Assembly: GCA_900095095.1 (NCBI GenBank)
Contig: FMBT01000291.1
Location: 1-64,000, forward strand
Source: Fragilariopsis cylindrus CCMP1102
Taxonomy: Eukaryota > Bacillariophyta > Bacillariophyceae > Bacillariales > Bacillariaceae
Direction: 5' to 3'
Length of the DNA stretch: 64,000 nt
Part shown: positions 31,871 to 64,000 of the stretch, piece by piece
Layout: each line of letters starts with the position of its first letter
Numbering within the stretch: position 1 is the first letter of the stretch
Made by a program: the position numbers and the translations under genes
The notes under the pieces: model-generated
Databases searched by the model: none
Seen by the model: only the letters and a program-made list of their open reading frames with translations
Told to the model about the DNA's origin: nothing

Positions 31871-33832
31871 CTACTTGTAGTCCAATACCTCGTCGCTTCC
31901 TATCTTAGCCATAGGATCAGAAGTGTTATCCTTGCGCAGTCGATACGCTTCCATTTCTTCCGCTGTCACGTCGACTTCGGCATTCATAGAGTTATACTTT
32001 CGTTTGTTACCATCTCCTTTCATGGTCTTTTCTTCTCGCTTAAATTTTTCTAACGCTTCCTTCACCTTATCCTTATCTATTTCAGCTTTTTGATCGGCTT
32101 CGCCGTACAGTTTCGAGCGACTCGAGGGAGGTTCCATTAAATTTTTAGAGCCATTGCTATTTGTATTTTTAGGTAGGGCTTTGAGCATTCCCCGTGCTTG
32201 CGCCAACGCAGCACTTCCTGCCACTCCGGTACCATACCGCATCTCATTAGCCTCGATATTCGCTCTCCGTCCTGCGTCTCCTGTACAATATGAGTTTCGA
32301 ATCAATGAATGATCGTCTGCGTATCCCCAACTAAAAGCTCCCATATGGAAGAAACTACCCCATACCGTGGTATGACCATTAGTGAGAATATCTTCTTCGT
32401 ACTTGGACTTTTGTGCCACCATCTTGTTGGCTTTGCCAGCAGGACCCTTAAGCAAACGACCGTCTCGACTGTATTCTTCGGTGGTCGTACTGACACCAAA
32501 TCGTATCTTTCTCTCTTCCACATTGCTGGCTTTAACACTCGAATAATTCTTTTCTTCGATGGCGTCGGCTAACCCACCACTTCCGTCCAAATATTCTCCT
32601 CCTCCGTACTTGTCCAGGACTTTTTTCTTCTTTTGCAATTGAATATCAGCCGACTTCGTTGTGAATTTCTTCTTCATAAGTTCTGCTTGGGATGGATTTG
32701 CTTGTGGATGAAGTTCCGAAACACCTTTGTCCGCTGCATCCCATGCAAATAGCTGTGTTTGGGCTAATTGAACGGCGTCTCCCGAAATCCGTGCAAAGTT
32801 ATCACCAGCAAATTGCAATTCTTCTGGTGCCACTTCCGGGTTGGGGTTGTCTCTCATTGACCGCGATTTTGGATCGTAATATGCTGAATTGGTGTCAAGA
32901 TTACGAAGATACTTAGCCGTGTCTTCGCGGATACGAAGATTACGAGCAGTAACCTTCATTTGGGCTCCACCTACACCACCCTGTCGTGCAAGACGTGAAG
33001 TAAAAAGTTTTTCTTCCTTATTAGCAAATTCATCACCTGAATCATCATCACTTCCCTCAGCATCCGAATCAACATCCGAATCCGAATCCGACGCTGCACT
33101 TTGTTGTTTCTTAACTCCATTTCCTTCTTTCCCTTCTTCTTCCTTTTCTTTCTTTAGTTTTTGCTTTTGTTCCTCTCGTAACTTGCGTCTCAATTCATCA
33201 CGATGCTGAAATACTTTTTCCACCTTCTTAGTGTGAGTGTCAGCATCATAACCTAAATATTTGTCTCTTTTAGCATCATACGATTCTTTTCCGTACTTGT
33301 CGGTGTCAATTTGAAGAGTTCGCGTTCCAGATTTAGTCATTCGGATCCGCGGTTTAAACATACTTTTAGATTTTGGTTTGAACTTAACTTTCTTTTCGAT
33401 GGTCCCGTCTTCGTATTTCAAATCGAACAATGTGTCCTTTTTCCCAAGTTTCACGATTTGGCATATCTTATATGTCCCCTTGTTACTTTTGAGCGCTTCG
33501 ACCCACATCCCAACTTCGTATTGTTGCTTCTTTCGTTTATCCTTTTCCTGTTGACGATCCTGCTTCAGTAATAAATCAGCTGATTTCATGCTTAGTAAAG
33601 CTCTATCGCTAGAATTCGGATCGAGAGCTTGATGGTCCAAAGATGGACCCTCGTCGTTATTTCCAAGATACCATGGTCGTTTCGTAATAAATTCTGGATT
33701 GTGTGGATTGATTATCTTGTTTGTATTGACATCAACAGCGGGAGCCACAGCACCGGATGCCCGAGCTTCCTGCAGTTCTCTTGCAGACCTTCGGTCTGAT
33801 GCACTCTCTGTTGTATGCGTTGGAGCGGGCAT
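31871..33832 (-). CDS. SLU7: Pre-mRNA splicing factor SLU7, zinc knuckle replaced
   Basis: A 653-residue single-exon SLU7, the second-step splicing factor that helps choose the 3' splice site. Landmarks run in order: IINPHNPEFITKRPWYLG near residue 40, YDAKRDKYLGYDADTH at 185-200, ARNLRIREDTAKYLRNLD and SAYYDPKSRSMRDNPNPE, then QLAQTQLFAWDA, ILTNGHTTVWGSFFHMG, SYCTGDAG and a C-terminal RKYNSMNAEVDVTAEEMEAY. Other SLU7 proteins have a CCHC zinc knuckle (CENCGAMTHKKKDC) between the first two blocks. Here that place (residues about 85-185) holds a basic helix and YEVGMWVEALKSN..TYKICQIVKLG..LFDLKYEDGTIEK, which looks like a Tudor/Agenet-type barrel. Only two cysteines occur in the whole protein, so no zinc site is possible there. 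The gene converges with the DEG protease gene (84 bases between stops). Confidence 0.9.
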   Translation of the reverse strand: MPAPTHTTESASDRRSARELQEARASGAVAPAVDVNTNKIINPHNPEFITKRPWYLGNNDEGPSLDHQALDPNSSDRALLSMKSADLLLKQDRQQEKDKRKKQQYEVGMWVEALKSNKGTYKICQIVKLGKKDTLFDLKYEDGTIEKKVKFKPKSKSMFKPRIRMTKSGTRTLQIDTDKYGKESYDAKRDKYLGYDADTHTKKVEKVFQHRDELRRKLREEQKQKLKKEKEEEGKEGNGVKKQQSAASDSDSDVDSDAEGSDDDSGDEFANKEEKLFTSRLARQGGVGGAQMKVTARNLRIREDTAKYLRNLDTNSAYYDPKSRSMRDNPNPEVAPEELQFAGDNFARISGDAVQLAQTQLFAWDAADKGVSELHPQANPSQAELMKKKFTTKSADIQLQKKKKVLDKYGGGEYLDGSGGLADAIEEKNYSSVKASNVEERKIRFGVSTTTEEYSRDGRLLKGPAGKANKMVAQKSKYEEDILTNGHTTVWGSFFHMGAFSWGYADDHSLIRNSYCTGDAGRRANIEANEMRYGTGVAGSAALAQARGMLKALPKNTNSNGSKNLMEPPSSRSKLYGEADQKAEIDKDKVKEALEKFKREEKTMKGDGNKRKYNSMNAEVDVTAEEMEAYRLRKDNTSDPMAKIGSDEVLDYK

Positions 33833-34422: not shown

Positions 34423-36420
34423 CTACCGTCTACGAAAGATACATAGAGTTTCAACATGGTTACTTCCAGGGAAAAGTATATATCCGGTTGCACTCTCTAA
34501 TTTCCATCCTCCTCCACTTGATAAAAGCTTTTCGCAGTCCCGAGCTAATGCATCAAATCCACAACTGACATATATTAAAGTTTGTACGTCATTTACCCAA
34601 TTTACCAAATGATCTGGCACGGTAAGCATATCTGAAGATTCCACACACGGTTGTTTCGGATTAAATGGTTTGCAGAGTTCATCTAAAACATAGTCTTCTA
34701 GTCCTTTTCTCGGGGGGTCTACAATTAAAATGTCCGCCCCTAAAGCTTGTCCAGCTTTCAATGCTTCCGCTGCACTAGCAACCATATATGATGCTTTTGG
34801 ACCCGTTCGATCAGCAGCTTCGCCTTCATAATCTCCGCCAGCCTCCATTGTCTTCATCAAATCTCCCAACGTAACCGTTTTTTGTTCTTCTTCTTTACGA
34901 GGGTATTCTGTTATCTTTTGAGGTCTTTTTTTGTTCAGTTTGTGCAGGGTAATTGAATAATTTGTTAGTTTTTATCGTCGGAAAACAACAGAAGCAAGCA
35001 ACAACGACCGAAGCGAGGAGTGGATCTCGAATTACAAAATAGCATTAGTGTAGTAGTGTACTTACAAGGATCGTAACGACGCAGAAAAACATCTAGGATT
35101 GGCTGGATTTTCATCACTGCATCGTATCCACGTCAATGGTTCACTATAACCTTCAACTCGATCTCGGTAATATTCATGATTATTATGATGAAAAATGAGA
35201 GCCGACAAGCCTAGCATACCAACTCCAGCATATAACTCACAAACCTTGCTACCTGGTGCAACCGCTCGTGCTACGTCATTGGCAATAATGTCAAATCCAT
35301 CAATATTACCCTGTCTAAATGCAAGAGGGGAAAAGTACAACCAACCCAGATCACCAACGGGTATAGGCTCTCGGACGAATTCAGGGCCCGACAATCGATG
35401 CCAATTACGAGGACTTCTAGTAAATATGTTATTTCCAGTACCGTCGTTACAATGACACCACATACTGTGCCATAAATCCGGTTCAATTTTACTTAGTTCC
35501 TTTGTGAGACGTGACAAATATGGATGCGTCTCTTTAAGTTCGGATTCGTTCCACACTACAGTCAGGCAGATTTTACCGGTCGTTCGTTCTACTTGTAGTT
35601 GTACGTAACGTAACCCACCAGTCCATTCGTCACTGTACGCATGTGTTCCCGTCTTGGCTGTTGCCTTTTCTAATGCTAGAATTGCTCTATTGATGGAAGG
35701 GTGATGAACTTTACAGTTGGGGATACTGATTACATTATGAGTCCCACGTTGGTATAGTCCAAAAATACATCCCTCCTTTGTCCATTGACCGCCCGATTTA
35801 GATGCAGCTACGAGTTTGGCTTGAGTTCTCCATTCACTTGTTTCAGTTGGTACCACCACCTCATAGAATCCATCTTCTTCAGCTTCTACTACCCAATCTT
35901 CTCCAGACCGTTCTACGTCAAGACGATTTTTACGAATTGATGTACTAGAGAAGAAACGTGCAGCAGATCGAACGATGTCAGTTTCGCCTACATTAGTATT
36001 GGTGACGCATCCAGGACATGAGTCAAAGTGTTCGCATACGATATTTTTTCTCTTTTCGTTTACTTCATCGTTCCGTTCGTCTTCATATATAGTAAGGACA
36101 GGTCTAGGCTGTCCAGCAGATGCATTCGTATTTGTTTTTTGTCGACGACGATCCCCTCCTCCTGCTTTGTTGCTGCTTTTGTTCTTTCCGGAATTATTTT
36201 TCTTTCCCTTAAACGTAGAACCCCCTTTTGTTTTTCGCCGATGTACAGCCGATAGAAATGTTACCGCAGATGACGAAGATTTCGTTCTGACACATTGACT
36301 ATGACCCTCATCGTGTTGTCTTGTCAGCAGTAAATGAGAAGGACGAGATACAAAACTCTCACACACTGTTGCAAGGCATAAAATAGCGATAACGAAACTG
36401 ACGGTCTGGTACATCGTCAT
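34423..36420 (-). CDS. Plastid-type RNA m5U methyltransferase (TrmA/RlmD-like)
   Basis: Two exons, 36420-35066 and 34924-34423, with a 141-base GT-AG intron at 34925-35065. The N-terminus is a signal peptide ending in ESF|VSR (residues 3-25), the plastid-precursor style, followed by a basic low-complexity linker. The enzyme starts with a cysteine cluster, CEHFDSCPGC (residues about 128-137). It continues with YEVVVPTETSEWRTQAKL, GTHNVISIPNCKVHHPSIN and the AdoMet motif KVCELYAGVGMLGL. Exon 2 carries ILIVDPPRKGLEDYVLDEL and LIYVSCGFDALARDCEKL, whose Cys is the catalytic nucleophile of RNA m5U methyltransferases. The layout matches the plant chloroplast-type members of this family. It probably methylates tRNA or rRNA uridine in the plastid; the exact target is not known. 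Confidence 0.8.
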
Positions 36421-36814
36421 TTGAATTAATTCTGGTTTATTGTGCCGAATTGAGTTGTTGTAGCAGAGCTTATATGACTGTTTCTATTGTTATTGTTAAT
36501 CTTGGCGATGATGTTGATGATTTATGAATAGATGTGTTGCTCATCTGTTCGATCGTTGATTTCAATCAGGATTTATGATTGTTGGAATGATGGAATGATG
36601 GATGATTGATGGCATGAAAAATTTAAAAATAATGATTGGGCGGTGAGCGAAGCGACGACACAATTCGGGGGCATATATATTTTTATCCCCTTTATGCTCA
36701 TTCAATAAGTCCCCTCGAAAATAAATTTTAACACAGCCAATTGACAATATACTTGAAGTACTACAGTAGAAACATTTTTAACAAGTCTTTTACATCTACT
36801 ACAGTAACCAAGAG
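36421..36814. other. Divergent intergenic region
   Basis: This is the upstream DNA shared by the methyltransferase and DUF3128 genes. Nothing specific was seen. Confidence 0.5.
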
Positions 36815-55994: not shown

Positions 55995-56263
55995 TATCAA
56001 TCTGATTCCGCAACTAACTTACTATCGATTGTTAGATACCAACCTGAGGGCTGACAGTATGACAGAGTAATGCTACTCTATTATAGTTGTTTCTTGAATA
56101 CTTCAGAAGTAATAATCATGTGTGTAGGAAGAAATCGGAACGGCCGAGAGAATGATTTTCTCGACTACCGGTAGATTTGTAGTGTGGTGTCTTATATTAT
56201 GTTATTATGATTTATTGTACCAAAATTTTGGCGGAATCGACAGCAAAACAGCAAGTAACGCGT

Positions 56264-56347
56264 CTCGTCGTAGCTCAGTTGGTAGAGCGGTGGACTGTAG
56301 AAGGTACTGAAATCCATCGGTCACTGGTTCGATTCCGGTCGACGAGA
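56264..56347 (+). tRNA. tRNA-Tyr (GTA) with an 11-nt intron
   Basis: A full cloverleaf. The acceptor stem is CTCGTCG/CGACGAG with discriminator A, and C1-G72 is the normal identity pair of eukaryotic tRNA-Tyr. The D arm is GCTC..GAGC, the anticodon stem GTGGA/TCCAT, and the loop CTGTAG..A has anticodon GTA at 56297-56299. The T arm is ACTGG/CCGGT with TTCGATT. An 11-base intron at 56301-56311 lies one base 3' of the anticodon, where nearly all eukaryotic tRNA-Tyr genes have one. The A box (TAGCTCAGTTGG) and B box (GGTTCGATTCC) are intact, and a T run for RNA polymerase III termination starts at 56350. Confidence 0.93.
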
Positions 56348-56349
56348 TC

Positions 56350-61128: not shown

Positions 61129-61203
61129 GGACGTGGGAAGGTGATGGATATTGATAAATGTAGTGACTGTGTATTAACCATTAATAATAATAATAATAAT
61201 TAT

Positions 61204-64000
61204 ATGTTAAAAGCAACTACATATCTATCCCCTTCGAGAAATCTATATCAACAACCACGTACGCCTATTGTATATCGTAAACAACTTGTACCATGCACTC
61301 CGAATGCCAACAGGAGATCACTCCGTGTATCGTTTCCATCCAATCTAATATGCGGACCAACACGAAAACCTGCAGCCTTAAAAGTTTGCAACGTATTGAT
61401 CGACAGGTACCCCGTAACAAGAGGTGCTATTGATTCTGGAGCAACAGACCATTTCTTACCAACAACGTACCACGGAGACAACCATCAGGCGACGTCCAAT
61501 GGCATGAAAGTGAAGTGTGCAAATAACTCCATAATGACGTCCACATCTACAGACGTCCTGTCGCTCGCAAAGCTCCCACCACTAGCACGTACCTGCCACA
61601 AGTTTGATGACGTATCAACGCCCCTCTTATCAGTGGGAAAGCTCTGTGACAACAACTTACACGTCCTCTTTTCACAAAACAAAGTGACAGTCACCGACAA
61701 GCCCCCAATCCTTACAGGTACAACCGTTATGGAAGGACGACGGCAAAATGGACTCTATTCGGTGCCAATACACGACGAGGCACATACACTTCCAAGGGTG
61801 GATGCACTTCCAAGGGTGGATGCACTTCCAAGGGTGAATCACACCGCAGGGATTGCTACTGCAGCTAGCGCATATGAAGTGCAAACAGTCGGAGCATTGA
61901 CAAACTTCTTCCACATGACGTTAGGCTCACCCTCTATACCAGAATGGATCAACTGTATCAACAACAATTGGTTCAAGTCATGGCCGGGACTGAGCGCAGA
62001 TAGAGTACGAAAATACTGCACCAAGAAAGAACAAACTACACTTGGGAACCAGAAAATGATCAAGAAGAATGTCAGAACATCGAATATCATTGACCTATCA
62101 GTTAGAAAAGAACGTATTGAACTTAGGAAGAAATTACATGACATAGGTACCTTCTTAATTGATGGTAATGATATGAAACAACTAATTGCAATGGATTTGC
62201 CAGGACGATATCCTGTTACATCAGCAAGAGGTCACAAATACATCATGGTTATGTACGATTATGACACTAACTACATCAATGCAGTGCCTCTAAAATCAAG
62301 GAAGTCAAGTGAACTCGTAGCAGCATTCAAGTTTTGTTATGATGAACTCAAGGAAAGAGGTTTCACAGCGCGTGTAATGCGATTAGATAATGAAATCTCA
62401 ACAGAACTTATTGCAGCAATAGGGGAACTGAATTTAGACTACCAGATCGTATCGCCAGGAGACCATAGATTGAACCATGCAGAACGTGCCATTCAAACCT
62501 TCAAGTCCAAGCTCATTGCTTTCAGAGAAGGCGCTGATCCGAGTTTTCCGAAGAACTGTTGGGACCTGTTTATTAAACAAACAGTATTAGCTATGAATCT
62601 AATGCGCCCATCAAGGATCAACCCGTTAATATCAGCATATACACTGGTCCATGGTGAATTTGATTTCAATCGAACTCCAATGGCCCCAGTTGGATGTAAA
62701 GTTATTGTTCATGATCGAAGAGGTGAACGCGGTAGCTGGTCCAACCATGGCAGTCATGGGTTTTACATTGAAAGAGCCCCTCATCACTACAGAAACTATA
62801 CTTGCTACATGCGTGATACCAAGCAAAATCGTATCTCCAATACGGTTGAGTTCTTTCCATCACATTGTTCACTACCCAAGGTCACACCTATCGATCGTCT
62901 AACCTTGGTACTACAAGACCTCCATCAAGTATTATCTCAACCTCCAAGCTATTTTCCATTTCTGAACCAAGGTACGGACCTACATACAGCCATAACTGCA
63001 ATCCAGAAGATACTCTGCTTACAAGTAGATGATACAGCAACTAAGGCACCAACAAGGCCTGTGCCACCTCCAAGGGTGGAAACTATAAACAATACCACCC
63101 AACGAGTAACAAGGTCCAGCACAGAAACAAACAGAGTGTTTATCAACGGTACCATTGTACGCCGAAAATTCAGCAGTGGCTACCACGAAGGAGAAATCAC
63201 AAAATATGATCCAATTGAACAGTACTACAAGATAGTGTACCGAGATGGTGATACAGAAGAGATGACCTACAATGAAATCAAGCAATACAGGAAGAAGAGT
63301 CAACAGTATACTAAACCAACCAAAAAGGCATTGCTCCTACTTCCAATTCGGCATCACGTACCAACCAACATTCATATACCTACAGCCAAAAGCCAACGTC
63401 CTAAAAAGGTACAACGTCTGAACCGATATAACCAAAATCCTACAGTGCAACAAAAACCAAATAGGTTTAGCAATGGATACAGCAAGGCAGTAGAACAGCT
63501 ACAACCAAACTTTGCTTTCGGAGCTTCAGGCGCCGTCTGGGACGACAGCCTCAATAAGATGGCGAAGTATCGAGATCTAATCAACCACAAGAATCCTGTA
63601 ATCAAAAATCGTTGGCTCCAATCAGGAGAAAACGAATTTGCCCGTTTATTCCAAGGTTATGGTGAAACTGAAGGAGTAGATGTACTGGATTGGATCCGCA
63701 AAGGGGACGTACCCCGTAACAAACAAGTAACGTATCCAAGATATGTAGTTGCTGTTAGACCAGAAAAGTCAGAACCATACCGTACTAGAATCACAGCAGG
63801 AGGCGATAGGATTGACTACGAAGGCAACGTAACAACGCATACAGCTTCAATGGAAACAATCAAGATGCATTGGAACTCAGTCGTTTCCACTCCAGGTGCC
63901 AAGTACTGCACCGCAGATATATCGAACATGTACTTATGCTCGCTATTGCCGGACGAAGAGTATGTCCGATTCAAATATGATATGATACCACCAAACATAA
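61204..64000 (+). CDS. Copia Pol: protease, integrase, start of reverse transcriptase
   Basis: An open frame from ATG 61204 to the window edge. The aspartic protease motif is AIDSGATDHFLP (about 61427). The integrase follows with the acidic triad in IAMDLPGRY (about 62188), MRLDNEIST (about 62385) and NHAERAIQTFK (about 62475), and its C-terminal block GFYIERAPHHYRNYTCYMRD leads to the usual NTVEFFPSHC. The reverse transcriptase begins near 63750 with EPYRTRITAGGDRIDYEGNV and CTADISNMYL, the first catalytic Asp block. The order protease-integrase-RT is diagnostic for copia. An 18-bp unit encoding LPRVDA is present three times in tandem at 61788-61841. Confidence 0.85.
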   Translation, partial: MLKATTYLSPSRNLYQQPRTPIVYRKQLVPCTPNANRRSLRVSFPSNLICGPTRKPAALKVCNVLIDRYPVTRGAIDSGATDHFLPTTYHGDNHQATSNGMKVKCANNSIMTSTSTDVLSLAKLPPLARTCHKFDDVSTPLLSVGKLCDNNLHVLFSQNKVTVTDKPPILTGTTVMEGRRQNGLYSVPIHDEAHTLPRVDALPRVDALPRVNHTAGIATAASAYEVQTVGALTNFFHMTLGSPSIPEWINCINNNWFKSWPGLSADRVRKYCTKKEQTTLGNQKMIKKNVRTSNIIDLSVRKERIELRKKLHDIGTFLIDGNDMKQLIAMDLPGRYPVTSARGHKYIMVMYDYDTNYINAVPLKSRKSSELVAAFKFCYDELKERGFTARVMRLDNEISTELIAAIGELNLDYQIVSPGDHRLNHAERAIQTFKSKLIAFREGADPSFPKNCWDLFIKQTVLAMNLMRPSRINPLISAYTLVHGEFDFNRTPMAPVGCKVIVHDRRGERGSWSNHGSHGFYIERAPHHYRNYTCYMRDTKQNRISNTVEFFPSHCSLPKVTPIDRLTLVLQDLHQVLSQPPSYFPFLNQGTDLHTAITAIQKILCLQVDDTATKAPTRPVPPPRVETINNTTQRVTRSSTETNRVFINGTIVRRKFSSGYHEGEITKYDPIEQYYKIVYRDGDTEEMTYNEIKQYRKKSQQYTKPTKKALLLLPIRHHVPTNIHIPTAKSQRPKKVQRLNRYNQNPTVQQKPNRFSNGYSKAVEQLQPNFAFGASGAVWDDSLNKMAKYRDLINHKNPVIKNRWLQSGENEFARLFQGYGETEGVDVLDWIRKGDVPRNKQVTYPRYVVAVRPEKSEPYRTRITAGGDRIDYEGNVTTHTASMETIKMHWNSVVSTPGAKYCTADISNMYLCSLLPDEEYVRFKYDMIPPNI
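61788..61841 (+). repeat. Three tandem 18-bp units in copia pol
   Basis: ACTTCCAAGGGTGGATGC is repeated at 61788-61805, 61806-61823 and 61824-61841 (the last copy with small changes), in frame within the protease-integrase linker. Confidence 0.9.

What the first reader, a model, noticed from the sequence alone, without database searches (positions are those of the whole stretch)
33383..33520. SLU7 with its zinc knuckle replaced by a Tudor/Agenet-like segment
Everything on either side is clearly SLU7 (INPHNPEFITKRPWYL before; KRDKYLGYDADTH, NLRIREDTAKYLRNLD, SYCTGDAG after). Where other SLU7 proteins carry a CCHC zinc knuckle, this one has VGMWVEALKSN..TYKICQIVKLG..LFDLKYEDGTIEKKV, a pattern of short strands like a Tudor/Agenet barrel. 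The protein has only two cysteines, so no zinc knuckle exists elsewhere. In animals the knuckle matters for SLU7 nuclear retention and 3' splice-site choice, so a swap to a possible methyl-arginine/lysine or RNA-binding module would change how this step-2 factor is recruited.
Basis: partly seen in the sequence, partly recalled or inferred. Interest (0 to 1): 0.7.

Follow-up and report, generated by a model that had tools for sequence, protein, structure and literature searches.

The report
Splicing factor SLU7 without zinc knuckle
In this alga, probably a diatom, the splicing protein SLU7 lacks the zinc-binding knot seen in the four other SLU7 proteins we could compare and carries a different small, possibly Tudor-like, domain there, which suggests one piece of the splicing machine was swapped for another.

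Summary
The window encodes an intact 653-residue SLU7 (31871-33832, minus strand; Pfam Slu7 E 9.5e-72), the only SLU7 found in its 67.9 Mb assembly. Between the conserved PWY and YDxKRD anchors, where the four SLU7s I could compare (human, yeast, PDB 9if7, eukaryotic contig L036) carry a CCHC knuckle, it has 129 residues with one cysteine and no detectable knuckle remnant, 40 to 45 more than human or L036. Residues 104-152 resemble Tudor domains: 15.8 bits against a 15-sequence Tudor profile built without it; 0 of 5000 shuffles reach that. This is twilight level: PDB-scale E is 0.059, the full-length protein scores 8.4 bits (E 13), no Pfam Tudor model reports it, and single-sequence AlphaFold gives strands but no convincing barrel. 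A methyl-reader role is not supported: by hand alignment at most two of four cage positions are aromatic. Best reading: a working SLU7 in which a small beta, probably Tudor-like, docking module replaces the knuckle that binds Prp8 in yeast. How widespread this is could not be tested; no other stramenopile SLU7 was reachable.

The parts
31871..33832 (-). SLU7 coding sequence, 653 aa plus stop, no intron needed
33665..33712 (-). N-terminal anchor INPHNPEFITKRPWYL (aa 41-56), shared with human and L036 SLU7
33377..33523 (-). aa 104-152: small beta-strand, Tudor-like segment in place of the CCHC zinc knuckle
33323..33382 (-). basic tail aa 151-170 (KFKPKSKSMFKPRIRMTKSG), at the place of the basic stretch that follows the knuckle in human SLU7
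   Evidence: role inferred
32354..33283 (-). Pfam Slu7 domain (aa 184-493), starts at the YDAKRDKYLGYD anchor
32270..32293 (-). C-terminal SYCTGDAG motif (aa 514-521), shared in part with human and L036 SLU7

Best explanation
This is the sole detected, and probably working, SLU7 of a photosynthetic alga, most likely a diatom. Its CCHC zinc knuckle is gone, and a roughly 50-residue zinc-free beta-strand module, most likely of the Tudor (royal) class, sits in its place between conserved flanks. The likely job is structural. In yeast the knuckle docks SLU7 on the Prp8 N-terminal domain; here the new module, with the basic stretches on both sides, would clamp the same arm on Prp8 or a neighbour without zinc, while the rest of SLU7 keeps its usual step-2 role. 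Shown: the SLU7 identity, the missing knuckle, no second SLU7 in the assembly, predicted strands and the Tudor-like profile score. Inferred: the barrel fold, absence of zinc, docking to Prp8, and retained step-2 function.
For: SLU7 identity and intact frame. One SLU7 in the assembly, with Prp8 and Prp18 matches present. All four comparison SLU7s have the knuckle here. No knuckle remnant reported. Tudor profile built without the segment: 15.8 bits, 0 of 5000 shuffles; of 1828 other frame windows, 1 scores higher, and that one ends in the window's retroelement Tudor. PDB-only Tudor profile: 12.1 bits, 0 of 5000 shuffles, 0 of 1828 windows. Whole 129-aa inter-anchor region: 13.9 and 10.1 bits, 0 of 5000 each. 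Both AlphaFold runs give successive strands over about aa 106-153, at low to middling confidence. Yeast knuckle binds the Prp8 NTD (PMC8022279, passages), and a yeast P complex class lacks the N-terminal half of Slu7 yet keeps the 3' splice site docked (PMC11651659, passages), so this arm can plausibly be remodelled.
Against: No Pfam Tudor model reports the segment; only CX at E 0.027 and 0.066, below its cut-off. On a PDB-sized search the segment's E is 0.059, next to the best non-Tudor hit at 15.9 bits; in the full-length protein the same profile gives 8.4 bits, E 13, and nothing with HMMER's filters on. The own-genome-only profile gives 8.0 bits with 5 of 5000 shuffles and 2 of 1828 windows reaching it. 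The better AlphaFold model (pLDDT 70.7; the other four of that run 44 to 54) has four strands, and none of the 50 listed rows of 450 Foldseek matches or of 559 VIA-align matches is a Tudor as I read the titles. Prp8 docking was not tested.
Confidence: 0.58

Rival explanations
1. The knuckle was lost and the stretch became a lineage-specific linker or a beta insert that is not a Tudor domain. The Tudor likeness comes from a short hairpin plus a YEDG turn.
For: The PDB-only Tudor profile aligns only a 26-residue core. Neither AlphaFold model has a Tudor among its listed structure matches. Twilight score on a PDB scale, and not significant in the full protein. Residues 98-165 hold 20 K/R in 68, as charged linkers do.
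Against: 0 of 5000 shuffles reach the score with two of three profiles and with the longer region. Strands appear in both predictions.
Confidence: 0.29
2. The segment is a true methyl-arginine or methyl-lysine reader that recruits SLU7 to methylated Sm tails or histones, as SMN or SPF30 do with their Tudor domains.
For: Tudor-like profile score. [quoted passage not shown]
Against: With the TDRD3 cage spacing (Y566, Y573, F591, Y594) the segment has L114, Y121, Y140 (after a one-residue shift) and G143: 2 of 4 aromatic, or 1 of 4 without the shift, and no asparagine at the N596 place. This is a hand alignment.
Confidence: 0.05
3. Artefact: this is a decayed or extra copy, an intron is read as coding, or a normal SLU7 is missing from the assembly.
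For: The assembly is in 818 contigs and appears to hold duplicate copies of some loci; its completeness is not known.
Against: Intact 653-codon frame with conserved ends. No in-frame intron with the tested splice signals in codons 86-190. A single PF11708 match in the assembly. The frame's first 515 residues hold one cysteine, so splicing within it cannot make a CCHC knuckle.
Confidence: 0.08

Closest known systems
SLU7 / Slu7 (PF11708), exon-ligation factor; human 5xjc, yeast 5mps
   Same: N-terminal INPH..PWY anchor, YDxKRD anchor, Slu7 domain, NLRIRED..YLRNLD and SYCTG motifs (compared with human)
   Different: No CCHC knuckle; the spacing between the PWY and YDxKRD anchors is 130 instead of 90 (human) or 85 (L036); GYADDHS where human has GYKCCHS
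Tudor domains of the LBR, KDM4A/C and PTM/DIR17 type (PF09465, PF21743)
   Same: VG..V start, YK/YY strand, LF/LY..KY.DG turn, length about 50 aa (alignments)
   Different: Not reported by Pfam; identity 23 to 26% to the six Tudor pieces aligned; no other match at E <= 10 in its own genome, where the first look gave one candidate; barrel not confirmed
SMN and SPF30, Tudor proteins of snRNP assembly and splicing
   Same: A Tudor-like module in a splicing protein
   Different: At least two of four cage positions are not aromatic (hand alignment); direct comparison with their sequences was not run

Membership tests
SLU7 (PF11708) | Match to the Slu7 domain over the curated cut-off (the Pfam model starts after the knuckle, so it does not ask for one) | tested here: met
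   242.4 bits against a cut-off of 27.9
SLU7 (PF11708) | Conserved N- and C-terminal anchors outside the domain | tested here: met
   Alignments with human and L036
SLU7 (PF11708) | Step-2 splicing activity and binding to Prp8 and Prp18 | not testable with these tools
   Prp8 N-terminal and Prp18 family matches are present in the genome
Canonical, knuckle-bearing SLU7 | CCHC zinc knuckle between the anchors, described as seen in all eukaryotic homologs (PMC11142667, passage) | tested here: not met
   One Cys in the first 515 aa; knuckle profile does not report the region
Tudor domain (royal superfamily) | Sequence match to a Tudor family model over its cut-off | tested here: not met
   Pfam scan of the segment; the SLU7 locus is not among the 21 own-genome PF09465 matches
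Tudor domain (royal superfamily) | Sequence pattern beyond chance | tested here: met
   0 of 5000 shuffles with two profiles; 5 of 5000 with the own-genome-only profile. Profiles were chosen after seeing the segment
Tudor domain (royal superfamily) | Five-strand barrel fold | tested here: inconclusive
   Strands in order but no confident barrel
Methyl-arginine reader Tudor | Aromatic cage of four residues | tested here: inconclusive
   2 of 4 (1 of 4 without a one-residue shift) by hand alignment with the TDRD3 spacing given in PMC3281842; rests on an unconfirmed fold

The most novel reading that the evidence does not exclude
A core exon-ligation factor has exchanged its zinc knuckle for a zinc-free Tudor-fold module that reads a modified or peptide ligand on the spliceosome, so that 3' splice-site choice in this algal lineage is tied to a different recruitment signal than in animals and fungi.
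Probability: 0.1. Interest if true: 0.75.

Novelty: new variant of a known kind. Interest (0 to 1): 0.5.

Why it matters
[quoted passage not shown] An intact SLU7 without it, the only one found in its assembly, would show that the knuckle is not universal and gives a natural experiment on what that arm does. It bears on whether the arm is a zinc-specific part or a replaceable clamp on Prp8.

Tried and rejected
Knuckle degenerated in place: phmmer pairs the region with the human knuckle only by running through from the flanks, and a knuckle profile does not report the region. Second SLU7 at C164 or C595: short chance matches or none. CCHC pattern elsewhere in the window: one His-repeat match. 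The CX module hit: below its cut-off, and the segment has one Cys. SMN_Tudor in the genome: nothing rang anywhere, uninformative. Origin from the genome's many Tudor copies: the segment finds only itself at E <= 10, with a first look that gave one candidate, so no recent copy was found.

More SLU7 sequences were sought in viral contigs with four queries: none. Genome contigs gave one (L036). Structure searches: for the first, low-confidence model, 50 listed of 643 Foldseek matches and 50 of 179 VIA-align matches hold no Tudor as I read the titles, apart from an MRG2 chromodomain at E 1.9; for the second, 50 of 450 and 50 of 559 hold none. Literature: Slu7 with zinc knuckle, 6 papers; Slu7 with diatom, 0; Slu7 with Tudor, 9, listing only, none relevant by title; further Slu7 searches (listings; several read in passages). 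A mixed stramenopile search had Slu7 in none of the 10 listed of 2,486. 9IF7, 0 papers, so its organism is unknown to me. James et al. 2002 is not held; my memory that the yeast knuckle is dispensable is recall only and is not used as evidence. Passages of PMC11833078, PMC5728500 and PMC6461851 were also seen; the first lists SLU7 among factors present in the human C* complex beyond the Chlamydomonas one, the second matched only in its reference list.

The Tudor profiles were chosen after looking at the segment, and three were tried (own genome, own plus PDB, PDB only); all three results are given. The own-genome set is 10 pieces that I picked from 30 fetched loci of 150 scored matches.

Full report
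What is there. The minus strand of 31871-33832 holds one continuous frame of 653 codons plus stop. Pfam finds only Slu7 (PF11708), residues 184-493, E 9.5e-72. phmmer aligns it to human SLU7 (5xjc) at 4.1e-77, including the INPH..PWY anchor before and the NLRIRED, YLRNLD and SYCTG motifs after, and to 9if7 SLU7 at 5.9e-17. The gene is the only PF11708 match in the 67.9 Mb, 818-contig assembly. Two weak full-length matches elsewhere do not hold up: one gives only short alignments, the longest 37 residues, and the other none.

The organism. No name is given. The genome has 104 matches to the light-harvesting family at E <= 0.001, counting exon pieces and apparent duplicates. One light-harvesting protein is closest to solved chains named FCPI-7 (6ly5) and Lhcr11 (6l4u), E 1.5e-87 and 1.6e-83; I recall both as diatom photosystem I structures. 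A second gave nothing at 1e-60 and only 9vfj LHCI chains at E <= 1e-30, which says little. A diatom is therefore likely but not proven; 18S could not be searched, and no RuBisCO large subunit was found.

The missing knuckle. Human, yeast and 9if7 SLU7 carry CxxCxxxxHxxxxC ahead of the YDxKRD anchor. So does SLU7 on L036, a contig filed under a gammaproteobacterial MAG that carries eukaryotic genes. The window protein has cysteines only at 124 and 516. Counting from the Tyr of PWY to the Tyr (Phe in L036) of the YDxKRD anchor, the distance is 130 here, 85 in L036 and 90 in human. A profile of the four knuckles does not report the 129-residue stretch at all, while leave-one-out controls score 75.0, 78.7, 39.1 and 30.6 bits. 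So the knuckle is absent, not merely drifted. A scan of codons 86-190 for strong-donor GT and YAG acceptor finds no in-frame pair that would remove the segment; in any case the first 515 residues hold only one cysteine.

What replaced it. Residues 104-152 read QYEVGMWVEALKSNKGTYKICQIVKLGKKDTLFDLKYEDGTIEKKVKFK. I built Tudor profiles that do not include it: T1 from 10 own-genome PF21743 Tudor pieces (picked from 30 fetched loci of 150 scored matches), T3 from 5 PDB Tudor pieces (LBR twice, KDM4A, KDM4C, 7de9), and T2 from all 15 (profiles and decoys, which then stopped; scores). Scores for residues 98-165 were 8.0, 12.1 and 15.8 bits for T1, T3 and T2. Of 5000 shuffles, 5, 0 and 0 reached them. 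The other decoys were 1895 windows of 68 residues from six-frame translations of 220 or more codons, so antisense frames are among them. Of these, 59 are from SLU7 itself and 8 were set aside as covering the window's retroelement Tudor; of the remaining 1828, 2, 0 and 1 score as high, and these overlap or adjoin that same Tudor. With the whole 129-residue region, the 15-sequence profile gives 13.9 and T3 10.1 bits, each with 0 of 5000 shuffles.

How strong that is. Searching PDB with the 15-sequence profile, 45 of the 55 listed sequences score 17.3 bits or more, and all 45 are Tudor proteins as far as I recognise the names; the 13 best are the profile's own members or their close kin. The best non-Tudor is at 15.9 bits, and two further proteins that I recall as having Tudor domains, MTF2 and ZGPAT (titles in the list: metal-response element-binding transcription factor 2; zinc finger CCCH-type with G patch), lie at 12.7 and 11.9. 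The segment at 15.8 bits (E 0.059 on that scale) therefore lies at the noise border of a database search, though it is beyond chance for one chosen site. In the full 653-residue protein the same profile gives 8.4 bits, E 13, and with HMMER's filters on it reports nothing. Pfam reports no Tudor model, and the SLU7 locus is not among 21 LBR_tudor matches in its genome.

How it may work. In yeast the knuckle binds the N-terminal domain of Prp8 in an early intermediate and is one of two ways Slu7 is recruited there (PMC8022279, passages). In human, segments 62-196 and 265-371 of SLU7 contact PRP8 and CWC22, and N-terminal basic patches take part in 3' splice-site choice; the knuckle is said to keep SLU7 in the nucleus (PMC9658179, passages). 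A yeast P complex class lacking the N-terminal half of Slu7 still holds the 3' splice site (PMC11651659, passages), and Slu7 and Prp18 are marked as not found in Stentor (PMC9505925, table passage). So this arm can tolerate change. Prp8 and Prp18 family matches are present here. I infer that the new module, with basic stretches beside it (20 K/R and 8 D/E in residues 98-165), clamps the same arm on Prp8 without zinc. A methyl-reader role is unlikely: with the TDRD3 cage spacing the four places are L114, Y121, Y140 (one-residue shift) and G143.

Known or new. SLU7 is known; a knuckle-less SLU7 contradicts the statement that the motif is in all eukaryotic homologs (PMC11142667, passage). I found no paper on it among my searches: (open-licence library only). 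It may be ordinary across diatoms and simply unremarked; that could not be tested here.

Noticed in passing
window 61129-64000 (continues to contig 65241; L043:630-4742): Copia-like retroelement frame of 1371 aa with a PTM/DIR17 Tudor domain (window 63148-63285) and a reverse transcriptase match just below its cut-off. The genome gave 150 scored PF21743 matches at E <= 10 from 169 candidates, many in frames of similar length.
   Followed up: partly
L036:1-8043: A contig filed under a gammaproteobacterial MAG carries eukaryotic SLU7 and PSMD13-like genes beside a carboxyl transferase gene that looks bacterial: contamination or a chimeric contig.
   Followed up: partly
window 32270-32326: The SLU7 C-terminal motif reads GYADDHS where human has GYKCCHS and L036 GYACCRS, so two cysteines shared by those two are also gone.
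   Followed up: no
window 33353-33532: Third-position G+C of codons 101-160 is 0.517 against 0.34 before and 0.383 after; with 60 codons this is only a hint of different origin.
   Followed up: no
L044 and L045: Prp18 is found on two contigs with identical scores and frame lengths, suggesting haplotype duplicates in the assembly; SLU7 is found once.
   Followed up: no
window 56263-56349: A tRNA gene (Rfam 58.6 bits) for which ARAGORN gives a four-base anticodon gtag and no amino acid.
   Followed up: no
window 34423-36483: Two minus-strand frames upstream of SLU7 look like one RNA methyltransferase gene split by an intron, by motif recall only; Pfam gave nothing at E <= 0.001 for the larger frame.
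   Followed up: no
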